Below are positions 19,904-48,205 of a stretch of 64,000 bases of DNA, in pieces. How positions within the stretch are numbered: position 1 is the first letter of the stretch; every line of letters begins with the position of its first letter. A program made the translations under genes and the position numbers. The DNA lies in assembly GCF_000217795.1 (NCBI RefSeq), contig NC_015681.1, forward strand, positions 1,789,244 through 1,853,243, in the 5' to 3' direction. The notes below the pieces were generated by a model that was not told the DNA's origin, did not search any database, and saw only the letters and a program-made list of their open reading frames with translations. Origin of the DNA: Thermodesulfatator indicus DSM 15286. Lineage in GTDB: Bacteria > Desulfobacterota > Thermodesulfobacteria > Thermodesulfobacteriales > Thermodesulfatatoraceae.

Positions 19904-21553
19904 TCAAAACACTATACGCAAAAAGGCCTCTATTTTATCTTTGCTCCCGATAAAAATATCATAGGTCCAAAACAGACCAAAAACCAAACACACTGGAACA
20001 AATACCCACCAGAAACGCCTGCGTTGGTTTTGCCAGAATTCCTTAAAATGCACGACAAAATAAGAGGCATACATACAGAGTAATGGAATTAACGGTAGGT
20101 GATACCGCGAATGCCCAAAAACAATGGCATGAATAGCCGTGAAATATAAGATGAGCAAAACGATCAACCAGTCTACATATCTCTGGGATTGCTTCGTCGG
20201 CTCTAACGAGCCTCCTCGCAATGACATATCTCTTGTCATTGCGAGGGGCCGTCTTCCCTCTGTCATTGCGAGGTCCCCAACGGGGACCGAAGCAATCTCG
20301 TTCTTCCCTAAAGCCCGCCACAAAAGTCCGCAAAAACCAAAGATAACCACAAAGACATAGGCCCCCAAGATACTCAACGAAATCCAGATCTCTACCAATT
20401 TATTACGCAAACCAGGGAAGTAACCTCTTTGCATTCCAGCAATAATTGTGCGTTCAAGCTGCCAGAAATTGGCTGTTTTTATTAGAGTGCGAAGCGCAGT
20501 CAACCCCGGATTTTCTTTCATAAATTCCAGGGCTTTTTTAATGGCCCAGCGCTGTTTTTCGGCCTCGTTAAGGCCGCCTAACTCTTTTTCGTGGCCGCGA
20601 TACCAGGCAATCTCTGGCGGGTTGTCCACCGCGGCCCAGGCCCGGTGAAGTGGTGTATGTTCGTAGTTGCCCATGTATAGATTGAGGCCGCCCATGGTAT
20701 CTACGGCGATAAAATGTCCAAAAACCTGATAATTGCGGGCTATCCAGGGAGAAAGGGTGAGCACCGTGGCGAAAATAAAAAGGATTCCCGCGAAAAGCCC
20801 CTGTTTTTTGTTAGGTGAAACAAGAAATAAAAACAGGGCAATAAAAGGTGTAAGGGGGTAGGTCACACTACGGGTAAGGCTTGCTAACCCCCAGAAAATT
20901 CCGGCTAAGAGCGAATATATCCACGCCTTGCTATCACGAGACTGCTTCGCTTCGCTCGCAGTGACAGGGTGGGGGGTGTCATTGCGAGGCTTCTCTCCAT
21001 CATTGTCATTGCGAGGGGCGAAGCCCCGAAGCAATCTCGTAGCAAAGCAATCCCTCCCGTCCAACCTGTATAATTGCTCAATTCCTGCCACCAGAAGCCA
21101 CAAAGCCAATAGAAAAAGAAAAATAAAAAGAATTTCCGTCAAAATCAGGTAATTAAAAATCACAAGTGAAGGATAAAAAAGAAACAAGCCTGTAGCCAAA
21201 AGGGCCACTTTTTCTTCGTGAAAAATCTTTTTGGCCAGAGAATAAACAAGAAGGCCACTTAATATAGAAAGAAAAATCTGAATTACCCGAACGGCGTTAT
21301 AATTTTCCGGCCCAAAAACTTTATAGACCCCGGCCAGAAAAGCCGGATAAAGCGGCGGCCGAATGGCCGTAGGCTTTCCCGGCGCCCAGCCGTACTCGCC
21401 ACGTTCCAGGATAGCCAGGGCCAACTTATTGTAATGCTGCTCGTCAACGATATTAAGAGGCTGGTGGATAAATAGCGGTAAAAACAAAAGTCTCAGTAAA
21501 AGCGCTAGAAAAATAAGTAAAATTAGCTTTTTAATAGGTGATTTGCCCACCAT
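19904..21553 (-). CDS. GT39/PMT-ArnT-type membrane glycosyltransferase with two in-frame repeat insertions
   Basis: 549 residues, about ten membrane helices. The first periplasmic loop has the acidic catalytic segment NIVDEQHYNKLALAILERG, and AIRPPLYPAFLAGVYK follows, as in ArnT/PMT-type enzymes that use polyprenyl-phosphate sugars. Two polar segments disrupt the fold: about 44 residues around FATRLLRGFAPRND (20932-21060) and about 41 around AMTEGRRPLAMTRD (20179-20305). Both are translated REP-like repeats kept in frame, each located in a loop between helices. The stop codon also lies in repeat-like sequence. The family transfers sugars to lipids or proteins; the acceptor is unknown. Whether the enzyme still works with these insertions is uncertain. 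Confidence 0.8.
   Translation of the reverse strand: MVGKSPIKKLILLIFLALLLRLLFLPLFIHQPLNIVDEQHYNKLALAILERGEYGWAPGKPTAIRPPLYPAFLAGVYKVFGPENYNAVRVIQIFLSILSGLLVYSLAKKIFHEEKVALLATGLFLFYPSLVIFNYLILTEILFIFLFLLALWLLVAGIEQLYRLDGRDCFATRLLRGFAPRNDNDGEKPRNDTPHPVTASEAKQSRDSKAWIYSLLAGIFWGLASLTRSVTYPLTPFIALFLFLVSPNKKQGLFAGILFIFATVLTLSPWIARNYQVFGHFIAVDTMGGLNLYMGNYEHTPLHRAWAAVDNPPEIAWYRGHEKELGGLNEAEKQRWAIKKALEFMKENPGLTALRTLIKTANFWQLERTIIAGMQRGYFPGLRNKLVEIWISLSILGAYVFVVIFGFCGLLWRALGKNEIASVPVGDLAMTEGRRPLAMTRDMSLRGGSLEPTKQSQRYVDWLIVLLILYFTAIHAIVFGHSRYHLPLIPLLCMYASYFVVHFKEFWQNQRRRFWWVFVPVCLVFGLFWTYDIFIGSKDKIEAFLRIVF
20179..20305. repeat. REP-like repeat inside the GT39 coding region (3' copy)
   Basis: CTCTGGGATTGCTTCGTCGG to CGAAGCAATCTCG, with arms CTCGCAATGACA and GTCATTGCGAGG. 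It is in frame and stop-free on the minus strand, adding about 41 residues between two membrane segments. Confidence 0.85.
20932..21060. repeat. REP-like repeat inside the GT39 coding region (5' copy)
   Basis: CACGAGACTGCTTCG to AGCAAAGCAATCCC, including CTCGCAGTGACAGG, GTCATTGCGAGG and GGGGCGAAGCCCCGAAG. It is translated in frame on the minus strand, adding about 44 residues. Confidence 0.85.
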
Positions 21554-21844: not shown

Positions 21845-22768
21845 TTACCAATCATAACCTTTTTCATATCCCAATTTAATTAGTAAATCTCCTGCTATTT
21901 TTTTAAAAATTTCTTTTTCTTTTTCTGAAAAGTGATTTCTCCAGTCACCAGAAACACCTTTGCGATAAAAACTTTTTTTATTTGCCTCTCCTCTTTTTCT
22001 TCCAGTTCTAAACTCAAAAGAAGACTTATGTATCATGTTTTCTAAAATATCGTTAGTATAATTAAGCCCTAAAAAATTAAGTATTTTTATAGCTATCGCT
22101 TTGTTATTGTTCAACATTTCTTCGTAAGAAATAGAAAATAATCCATATTCTTTTTCATATTGTAGCTGATATTCAATCATTTCTTTCCAGAGCTTTACGC
22201 TTTCTTCAAAGTCCCAGGGTAAATTCATGTTTTTAGCATAATACCTATGAGAAACTACAAAATCTCTTCCATCTCTATAAACTACTATTAGCTTGCTATT
22301 TGGATATGTGTTTTTTATACGTGGTATAGACCGTACATGGTCAGCACTTTTTTCTATTAAGCATTTGGGATTAAATTTCTTGATAAAATATCCAAAGAAT
22401 TCCTGACAATATTTCTCAGGGTCTTCAATTTTAAGAAGTTTTCTTTTTAACTTGTAACGTTCATTTAGACTTAAAGAATACTTAGTTAGTGGTTGTTCTA
22501 TATTTTTAAGGCCAACTACGGGTTTCCAGTATTTTCTCACAGGATTTAGTATCTTTCTGGCAAAAACTTTGATAAAAGGAGTACTCACTTCTGCCCAAGC
22601 TGTTTTATAGAAAAGAATTTTTGTTCTTTCCTTTGGTGACTTATTAAATGCATATTTAAAAAGATTAGTTTCTGCCAATCCGATGATATCAGGGTGTAAG
22701 CTAAGCATATTAATTAACCAAGTAGTGCCACATTTATAATGGCCAACAATAAAAGCAATACTAGACAT
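21845..22768 (-). CDS. Sulfotransferase (PAPS-dependent type)
   Basis: 307 residues. The 5'-phosphosulfate-binding loop IAFIVGHYKCGTTWLINML is at the N-terminus; the 3'-phosphate motif is KLIVVYRDGRDFVVSHRYY near residues 150-168. The family transfers sulfate from PAPS to a hydroxyl or amine of a carbohydrate, lipid or protein. One of three sulfotransferases in this polysaccharide region, which suggests sulfation of the exported glycan (inference). The end of the preceding GT4 gene overlaps its start by 8 bases. Composition is more AT-rich than the adjacent ligase gene. PAPS synthesis genes are not in the window. Confidence 0.85.
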   Translation of the reverse strand: MSSIAFIVGHYKCGTTWLINMLSLHPDIIGLAETNLFKYAFNKSPKERTKILFYKTAWAEVSTPFIKVFARKILNPVRKYWKPVVGLKNIEQPLTKYSLSLNERYKLKRKLLKIEDPEKYCQEFFGYFIKKFNPKCLIEKSADHVRSIPRIKNTYPNSKLIVVYRDGRDFVVSHRYYAKNMNLPWDFEESVKLWKEMIEYQLQYEKEYGLFSISYEEMLNNNKAIAIKILNFLGLNYTNDILENMIHKSSFEFRTGRKRGEANKKSFYRKGVSGDWRNHFSEKEKEIFKKIAGDLLIKLGYEKGYDW

Positions 22769-24170
22769 GGCTAACTACCTCATAAACTCTCCTAGAAACC
22801 AAAGACCAATCATGTTTTCTAGCCCAGAGGCGGGCCGCCTCTCCCATTTTTTGGCGCAGGTTCTTATCCTGCGCCAGGCGCCTGATAGCTTCCTTTAGTT
22901 CATTCAAGTTATTCCCATCAATTACAAAACCAGTTTCCTCGTGGCGTACGGCCTCAGGCTGGCCGCCGATATTTCCGGCAATAGAAGGAAGCCCCGCGGC
23001 GGCGGCTTCCATAAAAACAATGCCAAAACCCTCAATCATTGGCCCCACCTGAATGGAAGGCATAACATAAATATCTGCCGCGCAAAAACTCTTGATCTTT
23101 TCTTCTTCGGATATTTTACCCAAAAATTTAACCCAGGGTTCAAGATTATATTCTTGAACCATGTTTTTAAGCTTTCTTTCTTCTTCGCCAGATCCGGCTA
23201 TCACATAAGCCAAAGGAAGGCCCTCTTTTCTTAATTCTGCTACCGTTTTAATAACCGCGGCCTGGTTTTTCCTCGGCTCCATGCGCGCCACAGTCAGTAA
23301 AATTACGGTGTTTTCAGGGAAACCCCACTTCTGCCGATATTTTTGGCATTCTTCTTCAGGGATTTGATATTGCTCAAAATCCACACCCAGATGGACTACA
23401 TGTATCTTGTTTTCATCGCAGAATTCGGAGGCCAATCTTTTGGTAGAAAAACTATTAGCAATTACCAAATCTGATATTCGCAAGGCCTGCCTGGTTAACC
23501 AGCCAAGCTCTTTGCTGGTTTTGGCTACCAGGAATTCTTCTCCATGGGCATAGGTAACAATTTTTAGTTTGTCTTTCCATAAAAATTTTAGCCAGAGCAA
23601 ATTAGCCGCCTCGGGAATGGCTTTTACCACATGAATGGTGATAGGTTTTTCGATTTTTTTGAAGAATTGCCATAAAAGATAGGTGTTTTTAAAGAAATTT
23701 CTGTCAATGCCCCAGGAGGAAACGCAGAAAGGAAACCTTATAATTTCCAGAGGGTGCTCTTTTGGAAAGATTACTTCGTCGGCACTTTGTGCCTCCTCGT
23801 AATGACAAATGGAGGAGTTATTGCGATCTCCGTCCACCTCATTGTCATTGCGAGGCTCACCCCCATTTTTGTCATTGCGAGGCTGCGTTAGCGGCCGAAG
23901 CAATCCCAGAGACGGCTTCGCTTCGCTCGCAGTGACAGGGTGGGATGTTTCATTGCGGGGCTGCTCTCCATCATTGTCATTGCGAGGGGCGCTCTTTATT
24001 TTGTCATTGCGAGGGGCGAAGCCCCGAAGCAATCTCCCAGAAGAAACCCCAGAAGTAACGATCACGGCTGGGCGAGGCCAGTAACAGGCTACCTTATAAA
24101 GCCAGAGGTGAGCCCCACCTACTTTAGGGAAAAAATCATAAGTGAAAAAAAAATCAGCTCTCTTTCTCAT
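22761..24170 (-). CDS. GT4 glycosyltransferase with a large in-frame repeat insertion
   Basis: About 469 residues from the ATG at 24170 (a TTG at 24188 is in frame). The N-terminal GT-B domain opens FFFTYDFFPKVGGAHLWLY; the donor-binding domain has VILLTVARMEPRKNQ near residue 300, and the GT4 signature AAAAGLPSIAGNIGGQPEAV near 405. Between about residues 40 and 135 lies a segment of about 95 residues made entirely of REP-like peptides (LLRGFAPRND, SEAKPSLGLLRPLTQPRND). It splits the N-terminal Rossmann-like domain but keeps the frame open. The gene overlaps the O-ligase gene upstream by 17 bases. Acceptor and sugar are unknown; activity depends on whether the insertion is tolerated. Confidence 0.8.
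   Translation of the reverse strand: MRKRADFFFTYDFFPKVGGAHLWLYKVACYWPRPAVIVTSGVSSGRLLRGFAPRNDKIKSAPRNDNDGEQPRNETSHPVTASEAKPSLGLLRPLTQPRNDKNGGEPRNDNEVDGDRNNSSICHYEEAQSADEVIFPKEHPLEIIRFPFCVSSWGIDRNFFKNTYLLWQFFKKIEKPITIHVVKAIPEAANLLWLKFLWKDKLKIVTYAHGEEFLVAKTSKELGWLTRQALRISDLVIANSFSTKRLASEFCDENKIHVVHLGVDFEQYQIPEEECQKYRQKWGFPENTVILLTVARMEPRKNQAAVIKTVAELRKEGLPLAYVIAGSGEEERKLKNMVQEYNLEPWVKFLGKISEEEKIKSFCAADIYVMPSIQVGPMIEGFGIVFMEAAAAGLPSIAGNIGGQPEAVRHEETGFVIDGNNLNELKEAIRRLAQDKNLRQKMGEAARLWARKHDWSLVSRRVYEVVSHV
23767..24052. repeat. REP-like repeat cluster inside the GT4 coding region
   Basis: About 286 bases with four or more arms (CTCCTCGTAATGAC, GTCATTGCGAGGC, CTTCGCTCGCAGTGAC, GTCATTGCGAGGGGCGAAG), open in the GT4 reading frame on the minus strand. 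It is about three times the size of the other coding insertions, consistent with successive insertions. Confidence 0.85.
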
Positions 24171-26182: not shown

Positions 26183-26223
26183 TATGGTTTTAAGTAAAGG
26201 GCAAAAGCATTAAAGTAAAAAAA

Positions 26224-26391
26224 GTTGGTAGGGAGGGACAGGCTGTTGAGTCATGGAACGTTTGCTTTTTAGCAAACTGTTCGATCGCAAGATTAGCCGT
26301 CCTTCCCTGTGTTTGAACAGTATCCGGGACGTTTCCAATTACGGAAACTGTCCGTATACAAGGCTAAACCTGGAAGGACCTCCCTACCAAC
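26224..26391 (+). ncRNA. Predicted bridge RNA of IS110 copy 1
   Basis: A 168-nt non-coding segment closed by a perfect 13-bp stem (GTTGGTAGGGAGG, 26224-26236; CCTCCCTACCAAC, 26379-26391). Loop 1 has stem GTTTGCT/AGCAAAC with flanking GTCAT (26250-26254) and TCGCAA (26285-26290), matching the target GTCAT-TG-CGA on opposite strands. Loop 2 has stem GGACGTTTCC/GGAAACTGTCC with flanking ACAGTATC (26317-26324) and ATACAA (26356-26361), matching the joined element ends ACAGTATC-TTGTAT. That is the target-loop plus donor-loop layout of IS110 bridge RNAs. Transcription is not shown. Confidence 0.75.
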
Positions 26392-26431
26392 AATCTTTAT
26401 TTTATCTCAAAGAAAGGAGAATTGAAGACCT

Positions 26432-27400
26432 ATGAAAAATTTATCTTTTCTTGGGGTGGATGTGGCCAAGGATACATTGGTTATTTTTGATGGCCAGAAG
26501 GTTTACGAGTTTCAAAATGAAAGGGGTTTAAAGAAATTTAAGAGGAAGTTTTTTAAGAAGAAAGAAGACAGGAAGAAAAGGGTGGTGATATACGAGCCCA
26601 CAGGGCCATATTCGGCATTTCTGGAGGAGTTCTGTGCTACGAATATGATAAAAGTAGTATCCCTTAACCCCAGAAAAGTCCCCCGTTTAAGAGAAGTATT
26701 AGGTCACAGAGCAAAAACAGATAATCTTGATGCGAAACTGTTATACGAATATCACAAGATAGTTAGCGAAGAAGAGATCAAAGAAATAGAATATAACGAA
26801 AATTTAGAGAAATTAGCTTTATTGTTAAGTGAGTATCAATTATATCAAAACATAGAAAACAAGTTATCTAATTTTCTAGAGTATTTAGATAGAGTACCAG
26901 TAGATAGTAAAGAAAGCAAAAAACACATACAGAAAAACTTAGAAGAAACAAGGCAGAGGCTTCAGAAGATAAAGAAAGAGATGGAGGAATTAGTAAATAA
27001 AGATGACGACATAAACAAAGGGGTTAAAGAAATAGAGAAAGTTAAAGGTATAGGGAAGATGATAGCGACATATTGTTACATCTTTTTTCGGAAGAGGCGG
27101 ATAAGAAACCGGCGGGAGGTAGTAGCTCTAGCAGGATTGGACCCGGAAGTAAAGGAATCTGGTAAGAGGAAGCTGGTAACCAGGATAAGCAAGAAAGGGG
27201 ATAATAGGTTAAGGAGTTTGCTTTTTATGGGGGCGCTTAGTGCCATAAGATGTAAAGAAGGGGGACTAAAAGAGTATTACGAAAGTTTGATAAAGAGAGG
27301 AAAACCGAAGAAAGTGGCCATAATAGCCTGTGCCAGAAAATTATTGATATTTGCTTTCTATAATTACAAAAAATGGCAAATGGAAGCTCAAAGTGCTTGA
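26432..27400 (+). CDS. IS110-family transposase (DEDD recombinase), copy 1
   Basis: 322 residues. The N-terminal RuvC-like DEDD domain opens LGVDVAKDTLVIFDG and continues VVIYEPTGPYS and the family hallmark HRAKTDNLDAKLLYEY. The central part is a coiled coil (residues about 130-195). The C-terminal Transposase_20 domain has VKGIGKMIATYCYIFF, ALAGLDPEVKESGKRK and NRLRSLLFMGALSA with the catalytic Ser region. The start follows AAAGGAGA at a proper distance. Such enzymes recombine circular intermediates into a target chosen by the bridge RNA, without long duplications. It differs from copy 2 at only five residues and looks intact. Confidence 0.95.
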   Translation: MKNLSFLGVDVAKDTLVIFDGQKVYEFQNERGLKKFKRKFFKKKEDRKKRVVIYEPTGPYSAFLEEFCATNMIKVVSLNPRKVPRLREVLGHRAKTDNLDAKLLYEYHKIVSEEEIKEIEYNENLEKLALLLSEYQLYQNIENKLSNFLEYLDRVPVDSKESKKHIQKNLEETRQRLQKIKKEMEELVNKDDDINKGVKEIEKVKGIGKMIATYCYIFFRKRRIRNRREVVALAGLDPEVKESGKRKLVTRISKKGDNRLRSLLFMGALSAIRCKEGGLKEYYESLIKRGKPKKVAIIACARKLLIFAFYNYKKWQMEAQSA

Positions 27401-27418
27401 CAAAAACACAGTATCTTG

Positions 27419-42057: not shown

Positions 42058-42076
42058 CAAGATACTGTGGTTTTTG

Positions 42077-43045
42077 TCAAGCACTTTGAACTTCCATTTG
42101 CCATTTTTTGTAATTATAGAAAGCAAATATCAATAATTTTCTGGCACAGGCTATTATGGCCACTTTCTTCGGTTTTCCTCTCTTTATCAAACTTTCGTAA
42201 TACTCTTTTAGTCCCCCTTCTTTACATCTTATGGCACTAAGCGCCCCCATAAAAAGCAAACTCCTTAACCTATTATCCCCTTTCTTGCTTATCCTGGTTA
42301 CCAGCTTCCTCTTACCAGATTCCTTTACTTCCGGGTCCAATCCTGCTAGAGCTACTACCTCCCGCCGGTTTCTTATCCGCCTCTTCCGAAAAAAGATGTA
42401 ACAATATGTCGCTATCATCTTCCCTATACCTTTAACTTTCTCTATTTCTTTAACCCCTTTGTTTATGTCGTCATCTTTATTTACTAATTCCTCCATCTCT
42501 TTCTTTATCTTCTGAAGCCTCTGCCTTGTTTCTTCTAAGTTTTTCTGTATGTGTTTTTTGCTTTCTTTACTATCTACTGGTACTCTATCTAAATAGTCTA
42601 GAAAATTAGATAACTTGTTTTCTATGTTTTGATATAATTGATACTCACTTAACAATAAAGATAATTTCTCTAAATTTTCGTTATATTCTATCTCCTTGAT
42701 TTCGTCTTCGCTAACTATCTTGTGATATTCGTATAACAGTTTCGCATCAAGATTATCTGTTTTTGCTCTGTGACCTAATACTTCTCTTAAACGGGGGACT
42801 TTTCTGGGGTTAAGGGATACTACTTTTATCATATTCGTAGCACAGAACTCCTCCAGAAATACCGAATATGGCCCTGTGGGCTCGTATATCACCACCCTTT
42901 TCTTCCTGTCTTCTTTCTTCTTAAAAAACTTCCTCTTAAATTTCTTTAAACCCCTTTCATTTTGAAACTCGTAAACCTTCTGGCCATCAAAAATAACCAA
43001 TGTATCCTTGGCCACATCCACCCCAAGAAAAGATAAATTTTTCAT
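42077..43045 (-). CDS. IS110-family transposase (DEDD recombinase), copy 2
   Basis: 322 residues, differing from copy 1 at five positions (for example YSVFLEEF for YSAFLEEF, SEDEIKE for SEEEIKE). The same DEDD motifs are present: GVDVAKD, YEPTGPYS, HRAKTDNLDAKL, and the C-terminal Transposase_20 domain. The start follows AAAGGAGAATTG. It appears intact, so both copies may be active; either could supply recombinase for the other. Confidence 0.95.
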   Translation of the reverse strand: MKNLSFLGVDVAKDTLVIFDGQKVYEFQNERGLKKFKRKFFKKKEDRKKRVVIYEPTGPYSVFLEEFCATNMIKVVSLNPRKVPRLREVLGHRAKTDNLDAKLLYEYHKIVSEDEIKEIEYNENLEKLSLLLSEYQLYQNIENKLSNFLDYLDRVPVDSKESKKHIQKNLEETRQRLQKIKKEMEELVNKDDDINKGVKEIEKVKGIGKMIATYCYIFFRKRRIRNRREVVALAGLDPEVKESGKRKLVTRISKKGDNRLRSLLFMGALSAIRCKEGGLKEYYESLIKRGKPKKVAIIACARKLLIFAFYNYKKWQMEVQSA

Positions 43046-43085
43046 AGGTCTTCAATTCTCCTTTCTTTGAGATAAAATAAAGATT

Positions 43086-43253
43086 GTTGGTAGGGAGGTC
43101 CTTCCAGGTTTAGCCTTGTATACGGACAGTTTCCGTAATTGGAAACGTCCCGGATACTGTTCAAACACAGGGAAGGACGGCTAATCTTGCGATCGAACAG
43201 TTTGCTAAAAAGCAAACGTTCCATGACTCAACAGCCTGTCCCTCCCTACCAAC
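43086..43253 (-). ncRNA. Predicted bridge RNA of IS110 copy 2
   Basis: Identical in layout to the copy 1 segment: 13-bp closing stem (CCTCCCTACCAAC at 43241-43253, GTTGGTAGGGAGG at 43086-43098 on the plus strand) and the same target guides (GTCAT, TCGCAA) and donor guides (ACAGTATC, ATACAA) read on the minus strand. Conservation in both copies is expected because they are recent duplicates, so it is not independent support. Confidence 0.75.
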
Positions 43254-43297
43254 TTTTTTTACTTTAATGCTTTTGCCCTTTACTTAAAACCATACAA

Positions 43298-47976: not shown

Positions 47977-48079
47977 TTTTTTGATGGGTACTTTTTATCC
48001 AACAAAGAGTTATTAGCTTATCAACAGCCATCGGCTATCGGCCAACAGCTATTTGCCATCAACCATCAGCCATCTACCA

Positions 48080-48205
48080 TCCCGTCACTGCGAGGAGGCC
48101 CGTAGGGCCGACGAAGCAGCCCCTATTCCGAACACAACTAAGGGGTCTCTGAGATCGCCTCAGCGCCGCTCATGCTTCGCGAAGGCAAGGGGCTCACAAG
48201 AGTAT
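48080..48205. repeat. REP-like repeat, partial, with neighbouring GCCAT microrepeats
   Basis: GTCACTGCGAGGAGG, hairpin GGCCCGTAGGGCC and GACGAAGCAGCCCC, then degenerate GATCGCCTCAGCGC. Just upstream (48025-48075) is a run of GCCATCGGCTATCGGCC-type microrepeats also seen at 5757 and 15862. No gene is seen in 47977-48364. Confidence 0.75.

What the first reader, a model, noticed from the sequence alone, without database searches (positions are those of the whole stretch)
23767..24052. A 286-bp repeat cluster translated in frame inside a GT4 glycosyltransferase
The GT4 at 22761-24170 is otherwise a normal family member, but about 95 residues composed of repeat peptides (APRND, SEAKPS, LLRPLTQPRND) sit within its N-terminal domain without stop or frameshift. 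This resembles Rickettsia palindromic elements, which also insert in frame in genes. The element may be selected to be stop-free in one frame.
Basis: partly seen in the sequence, partly recalled or inferred. Interest (0 to 1): 0.75.

Follow-up and report, generated by a model that had tools for sequence, protein, structure and literature searches.

The report
Palindromic repeats translated within surface-sugar enzymes
A run of small mobile-looking DNA palindromes sits, in frame, inside a working sugar-transferring enzyme of a heat-loving bacterium and adds a floppy loop of about 90 amino acids; its sister species carries a different run at the same spot, so a gene can live with such junk for a long time.

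Summary
A 272-bp array of REP-like palindromes (23766-24037) lies in frame in a functional GT4 gene (22761-24170, minus). It is an insertion: four homologues have about 20 residues there. It is not decay: the Thermodesulfatator autotrophicus orthologue carries a different in-frame array at the same place, and the gene is conserved on both sides (dN/dS about 0.03 and 0.08). AlphaFold2 makes the segment a disordered loop between strands 2 and 3 of the N-terminal domain.

The nearby PMT-like gene (19904-21553) has two more in-frame arrays, also at the same sites in the sister species. Of 108 multi-unit clusters examined, these three are the only clearly internal in-frame ones.

"Selected to be stop-free in one frame" is not supported. 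The 32 repeat heads in six arrays are read in all five open phases, never in the stop phase, and intergenic arrays up to 300 bp are about as open as shuffles. Selection keeps the host frame, not a peptide.

Most likely these are tolerated selfish repeats that entered flexible loops before the species split and have turned over since. In-frame REPs are published (Rickettsia RPE, CGTC REPs): an informative new member of a known kind.

The parts
22761..24170 (-). GT4 glycosyltransferase gene, 469 aa, host of the array
   Evidence: ORF, Pfam, GT-B matches in PDB, dN/dS
23766..24037 (.). REP-like array, about 91 codons, in frame (about residues 46-136 of the GT4)
   Evidence: units from the covariance model; absent in four homologues
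24002..24037 (+). full repeat unit; first unit in the reading direction of the gene, shared in place with T. autotrophicus
23908..23937 (-). full repeat unit
23870..23908 (+). full repeat unit
23766..23807 (-). full repeat unit; last in the reading direction of the gene
23844..23854 (+). repeat head without a matching second half
23976..23986 (+). repeat head without a matching second half
19904..21553 (-). PMT_2-family membrane glycosyltransferase gene, 549 aa, with two in-frame arrays
20937..21039 (.). in-frame array at site 1 of the PMT gene, two full units
20184..20300 (.). in-frame array at site 2 of the PMT gene, two full units

Best explanation
The segment is an array of CGTC-like REP units: short palindromes with a tag that is mostly NGTC, an outer stem such as ATTGC/GCAAT, an inner stem of variable length, and mostly alternating orientation (shown). 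Such units entered the codons of flexible loops in two neighbouring surface-polysaccharide genes before the window species and T. autotrophicus split (inferred from shared sites and a shared first unit). Since then the arrays have gained, lost and replaced inner units in each species, probably by recombination or template switching with other copies (inferred; no transposase gene is linked). Purifying selection on the enzymes lets through only arrays that keep the host reading frame and hold no stop, whatever frame each unit is read in (shown by comparison of six arrays). The product is a tolerated disordered loop of about 90 residues between strands 2 and 3 of the GT4 N-terminal domain (predicted). 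No function of the peptide is needed.
For: Insertion: four of five homologues lack the segment. Live gene: dN/dS 0.028 before and 0.076 after the array; 0.131, 0.037 and 0.154 in three parts of the PMT gene. Shared sites: three of three internal arrays of the window species have in-frame counterparts at the same sites in T. autotrophicus, with different inner content. Frame filter: six of six arrays open; 0 of 20 antisense heads in the TGA phase, the other five phases all used. Not a translated design: intergenic arrays up to 300 bp are about as open as shuffles. Permissive place: pLDDT under 50 for residues 42-138 between strands 35-41 and 142-147; the PMT protein is encoded as two separate ORFs, broken near site 1, in two relatives. 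Repeat family: covarying stems, at least 150 units in the genome, hot spot in this window.
Against: No expression data. The first GT4 unit agrees in 34 of 35 bases between the species although synonymous sites around it are near saturation: this suggests recent homogenisation, separate insertion at the same spot or constraint on the hairpin, and weakens the simple story of one old insertion. Six arrays are not six independent events. The PMT model is weak (mean pLDDT 56). The mechanism of growth is not shown. That two genes of one locus hold all three internal arrays may hint at something beyond mere tolerance, though the locus is a hot spot for the repeats anyway.
Confidence: 0.8

Rival explanations
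1. The loop has been taken into service: the charged, disordered insert helps the GT4 and the PMT, for example by holding enzymes of one pathway together or at the membrane.
For: All three internal arrays lie in two genes of one locus, and all three are kept in both species.
Against: The peptide is not conserved; the last GT4 unit is even read in different frames in the two species, and relatives do without it.
Confidence: 0.08
2. The array matters as RNA or DNA, not as peptide: hairpins in the message tune stability or translation of the operon, or the DNA palindromes serve as binding or recombination sites.
For: Stems covary across units; the segment folds strongly; REPs elsewhere are known to act on messages (PMC3733652, abstract read).
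Against: The great majority of units are outside genes, and nothing ties the intragenic ones to a role; relatives lack them.
Confidence: 0.08
3. The gene is a decaying copy and the open frame is chance.
For: Large insertions often mark decay.
Against: dN/dS far below 1 on both sides of the array, and an open in-frame array in the sister species too.
Confidence: 0.01
4. The ribosome skips the array, or it is cut from the message, so that it never reaches the protein.
For: Strong hairpins; bypassing of inserts is known from a few systems (recalled).
Against: Skipping would remove the need for an open frame, yet six of six arrays are open and the stop phase is avoided in 20 of 20 antisense heads.
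Confidence: 0.03

Closest known systems
CGTC-tagged REPs, including intragenic ones (PMC3733652; sections 6 and 15 and passages read)
   Same: Short tagged palindromes in high copy, paired in opposite orientation, no linked transposase; in-frame intragenic clusters of 43-82 residues are reported, and REPs at about the same site of recB in two Xanthomonas species.
   Different: Stem is interrupted by an unpaired G-A stretch, tail is mostly not CCA, first base of the tag is often not C; arrays are compared here between two species at three sites; the paper's main text has no match for 'thermodesulf'.
Rickettsia palindromic elements (RPE; passages of PMC10969869 read, original papers recalled)
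   Same: Palindromic repeats inserted in frame in working genes; PMC3733652 equates RPE-4 and RPE-6 with CGTC types.
   Different: RPEs are about 150 bp and each encodes a conserved peptide, nearly half lie in ORFs; here units are 30-42 bp, read in five phases, and 3 of 108 multi-head clusters are internal to genes.
dRS3 repeats of Neisseria (CGTC-1 according to PMC3733652)
   Same: CGTC-type REP by that paper, mostly in large clusters.
   Different: Sequence not compared here; in-frame use not looked up.

Membership tests
[quoted passage not shown]
   Of 303 full units 151 have TGTC and 30 CGTC, but 56 have AGTC and 29 GGTC.
CGTC-tagged REP superfamily (PMC3733652) | Stem of 8 or 9 bp with A-T residues in the first two places | tested here: not met
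   Outer stem of 5 bp, then an unpaired G-A stretch, then an inner stem of variable length; first pair A-U in 40 of 43, second U-A in 28 and C-G in 15 of 43.
CGTC-tagged REP superfamily (PMC3733652) | Unpaired tail, mostly CCA | tested here: not met
   TCT 95, TCA 72, CCT 51, CCA 12 of 303.
CGTC-tagged REP superfamily (PMC3733652) | HH dimers predominate, TT dimers rare, clusters rare | tested here: inconclusive
   Tail-to-tail 53, head-to-head 40, same direction 17 of 110 close pairs; I did not see the paper's drawing of H and T.
CGTC-tagged REP superfamily (PMC3733652) | No linked transposase gene | tested here: met
   16 Y1_Tnp places in the genome; the nearest of the 150 best units is 2,453 bases off.
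Rickettsia palindromic elements | In-frame insertion in working genes | tested here: met
Rickettsia palindromic elements | About 150 bp, encoding one conserved peptide | tested here: not met
   Units of 30-42 bp with flanks read in five phases.
Rickettsia palindromic elements | Sequence homology to RPE families | not tested
   No Rickettsia sequence was compared.
GT4 glycosyltransferases (host gene) | GT-B fold with GT4 N- and C-terminal domains | tested here: met
   Pfam above cut-off; Foldseek matches to MshA, BshA and PimB'.

The most novel reading that the evidence does not exclude
REP arrays act as a standing source of loop variation in surface-polysaccharide enzymes: a repeat hot spot rebuilds disordered loops in frame again and again, and this is kept because varied loops alter the cell-surface product. 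The arrays would then be a slow, selection-filtered generator of diversity rather than mere junk.
Probability: 0.08. Interest if true: 0.75.

Novelty: new member of a known kind. Interest (0 to 1): 0.45.

Why it matters
Selfish palindromes inside proteins are best known from Rickettsia, where small populations may make tolerance easy. Here a bacterium outside that group (a thermophile by its genus, recalled) keeps them in two enzymes under strong purifying selection. Two species with different arrays at three identical sites separate selection for the host frame from selection for the repeat peptide. That makes the old question, whether such inserts are useful or only tolerated, testable with one gene and its array-free relatives.

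Tried and rejected
Decay of the gene was rejected by dN/dS on both sides of the array. A conserved domain was rejected by four homologues without it. Selection of the element for one open frame was rejected: five phases are used, and intergenic arrays up to 300 bp are about as open as shuffles. Above 300 bp they are somewhat more open (0.31 against 0.08 frames of six, 16 clusters), which I cannot explain. Mobilisation by the Y1_Tnp (RAYT-like) genes was considered; none has a unit near it (one search scanned three of these loci, measured distances for 16 places to the 150 best units only). Rfam found only a tRNA in the window. A scan of viral contigs gave no relative of the GT4.

Results that weaken the picture: of seven same-genus relatives, G002 and G003 have no unit and G001 has 13, so the family is patchy. 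In T. autotrophicus two more ORFs carry arrays near the N-terminus (L157, L170); I left them out of the count of internal arrays because the true start may lie downstream. L096 of the window genome is the same kind of case. Single-head matches inside ORFs (L072, L118; L203) were dropped as chance. One search, with looser limits, also lists short ORFs made largely of repeats and one chance match inside a long gene (L102); I dropped these as not being arrays inside recognised genes, by eye. L102 overlaps the window by 468 bases, which were masked but not. G004, with 61 units, was not scanned for in-frame arrays.

In searches I saw no title or abstract that describes in-frame REPs in Thermodesulfatator; most subscription papers are not held.

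Full report
WHAT IS THERE. The window is part of a single-contig genome of 2,322,224 bases. Its close relative G007 has a contig of 24,346 bases that corresponds to NZ_LSFI01000045.1 of Thermodesulfatator autotrophicus S606 (same length, same genes); the search puts both in one genus. The size fits T. indicus, which I recall and no call confirms, so I write 'the window species'. The GT4 gene is 22761-24170 on the minus strand. Its array runs from 23766 to 24037 and holds four full repeat units and six heads, in both orientations.

THE REPEAT. The unit is a palindrome: a tag that is mostly NGTC, an outer stem such as ATTGC/GCAAT, a short unpaired G-A stretch, an inner stem of variable length with a small loop, and a tail such as TCT or TCA. 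In 43 distinct window units two outer pairs show exchanges on both sides (UA 28 and CG 15; GC 37 and AU 6), 97.7% of cells are paired, and the covariation score exceeds all 500 shuffles and every slid version. In 303 full units of the fetched stretches the stems ACTGC/GCAGT (123), ATTGC/GCAAT (89) and ATTAC/GTAAT (20) dominate. Of 110 close pairs 53 are tail-to-tail (33 of them 5 bases apart), 40 head-to-head and 17 in the same direction. A covariance model finds 150 units in the genome, the number scored being capped at that, 310 in the window and 83 stretches, and 121 in G007 at E up to 1e-4. Of 60 relatives 17 have a match (stricter filters). The window is a hot spot: 29 of the 150 best units lie in it, 0.45 per kb against 0.054 elsewhere.

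IT IS AN INSERTION. The GT4 orthologues of G004, G010, a Desulfohalobiaceae MAG and a MAG labelled Heimdallarchaeota have 386-405 residues and about 20 residues where the window gene has about 100. T. autotrophicus has 488-490 residues and an array at the same place.

IT IS OLD, AND THE GENE IS ALIVE. The first unit begins at residue 46 in both species, and 34 of 35 of its bases agree (counted), but inside the arrays differ in number, order and type of units. dN/dS (Nei-Gojobori; synonymous sites near saturation, so rough) is 0.028 over the 40 residues before the array and 0.076 after it. In the nearby PMT-like gene two more arrays lie in frame, and T. autotrophicus has longer arrays at the same two sites; the three gene parts around them have dN/dS 0.131, 0.037 and 0.154. 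So three of three internal sites are shared, and six of six arrays are open and in frame. A complete single-contig genome and an independent draft agree, so this is not an assembly artefact.

WHAT IS SELECTED. In the six arrays there are 32 heads (my tally). Twenty lie antisense to the gene: 12 are read with ..RND, 8 with .AMT, none in the third phase, which would give TGA. Twelve lie in the sense direction: 4 as V.AS, 5 as .H.E, 3 as SLRG. If placed independently, 0 of 20 in one of three phases would have a chance of about 0.0003, but shared units make for fewer than 20 events. Intergenic clusters with two or more heads compare with their shuffles as follows, in open frames of six: under 100 bp 2.14 against 2.21 (14 clusters); 100-150 bp 0.79 against 0.99 (33); 150-200 bp 0.79 against 0.53 (19); 200-300 bp 0.26 against 0.29 (23); above 300 bp 0.31 against 0.08 (16). 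So apart from the longest class the repeats show no special design for translation; the host gene filters them. The last full unit of the GT4 array is read in different frames in the two species (CHYE against GSLRG) while the frame on both sides is kept. Selection sees the frame, not the peptide.

WHERE IT SITS IN THE PROTEIN. AlphaFold2 (seven-sequence alignment, mean pLDDT 72.5) gives pLDDT below 50 for residues 42-138, between strands 35-41 and 142-147, and a confident C-terminal domain; the model matches MshA, BshA and PimB'. This loop also varies among homologues. The PMT arrays fall between predicted helices (weak model, three sequences). In G004 and G008 the PMT protein is encoded by two ORFs on different contigs, 164 residues for the N-terminal part and 321 or 317 for the C-terminal part, broken near site 1. 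The loop is thus a place where the protein can apparently be broken altogether.

HOW SPECIAL. Of 108 clusters with two or more heads in the window and its genome's stretches, four lie inside an ORF of 200 residues or more: the three described, and L096, which sits at an N-terminus. In the T. autotrophicus stretches (111 clusters, single heads included) the same three sites are the only multi-head ones well inside an ORF; two N-terminal cases are ambiguous. These counts cover stretches around model hits, not whole genomes.

MECHANISM. Best supported is tolerated selfish DNA under a frame filter (0.8). How arrays grow is inferred: units identical to array units occur elsewhere in the same genome for some units (up to six copies) but not for most, which fits exchange between copies followed by drift. 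A role of the peptide (0.08), a role of the hairpins as RNA or DNA (0.08), skipping by the ribosome (0.03) and decay (0.01) are less likely.

KNOWN OR NEW. PMC3733652 (sections 6 and 15 and passages read) describes tagged REPs in more than 80 species, equates RPE-4 and RPE-6 with CGTC types, lists in-frame intragenic REPs with clusters of 43-82 residues, and notes REPs at about the same site of recB in two Xanthomonas species. PMC10969869 (passages) sums up the RPEs. PMC12306157 (passages) has T. atlanticus in a table of REP counts. So in-frame REPs, and even same-site REPs, are in print. The units here resemble CGTC REPs but fail the stem and tail criteria, so I call them CGTC-like and do not file them as members. 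What is added is a paired comparison at three sites under measured purifying selection, and the phase result.

SIDE FINDING. The genome has eight full-length copies of one IS110-family element and a ninth whose frame is broken in two. All eight full-length copies sit at one position in the head of a repeat unit, with left flank ..GTCATTG and right flank TTGCGAG... The leader of the window copy folds strongly (z -5.5) and has GTCAT and TCGCAA on the two sides of a hairpin, as one would expect of a bridge RNA target loop (that architecture is recalled). That REPs are targets of insertion sequences is known (PMC1525189, abstract read).

Noticed in passing
about 26183-27415 (+) and about 42061-43294 (-); also L129, L130, L132-L135: All eight full-length IS110-family copies of this genome are inserted at the same position inside a repeat-unit head (GTCATTG / TTGCGAG). 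The leader has a strong hairpin flanked by GTCAT and TCGCAA, a likely bridge RNA target loop aimed at the repeat.
   Followed up: partly
L123 with L125 (G004); L124 with L127 (G008): The PMT-like glycosyltransferase is encoded as two separate ORFs on different contigs in two relatives, broken near array site 1 of the window gene: possibly a split membrane glycosyltransferase.
   Followed up: partly
L025-L028 and further places in G000: Some 16 places match Y1_Tnp (RAYT-like, frames of about 290-350 aa), none near a repeat unit. What they mobilise is not known.
   Followed up: partly
48022-48081; similar peptides in L052, L057, L091: A 21-base tandem repeat next to a repeat unit; translations of other repeat clusters show a similar SAISHQP-like run, which suggests a second, associated repeat.
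   Followed up: no
L157 1092-2435 and L170 1111-2436 (T. autotrophicus): Arrays lie in frame near the N-terminus of two longer ORFs that look like exported proteins; the true starts may be downstream.
   Followed up: no
L031: A contig in a MAG labelled Heimdallarchaeota carries the same Wzy-like and GT4 gene pair (GT4 about 54% identical): mis-binning or transfer.
   Followed up: no
window, clusters above 300 bp in the fetched stretches: The longest intergenic arrays are open in more frames than their shuffles (0.31 against 0.08 of six, 16 clusters); unexplained.
   Followed up: no
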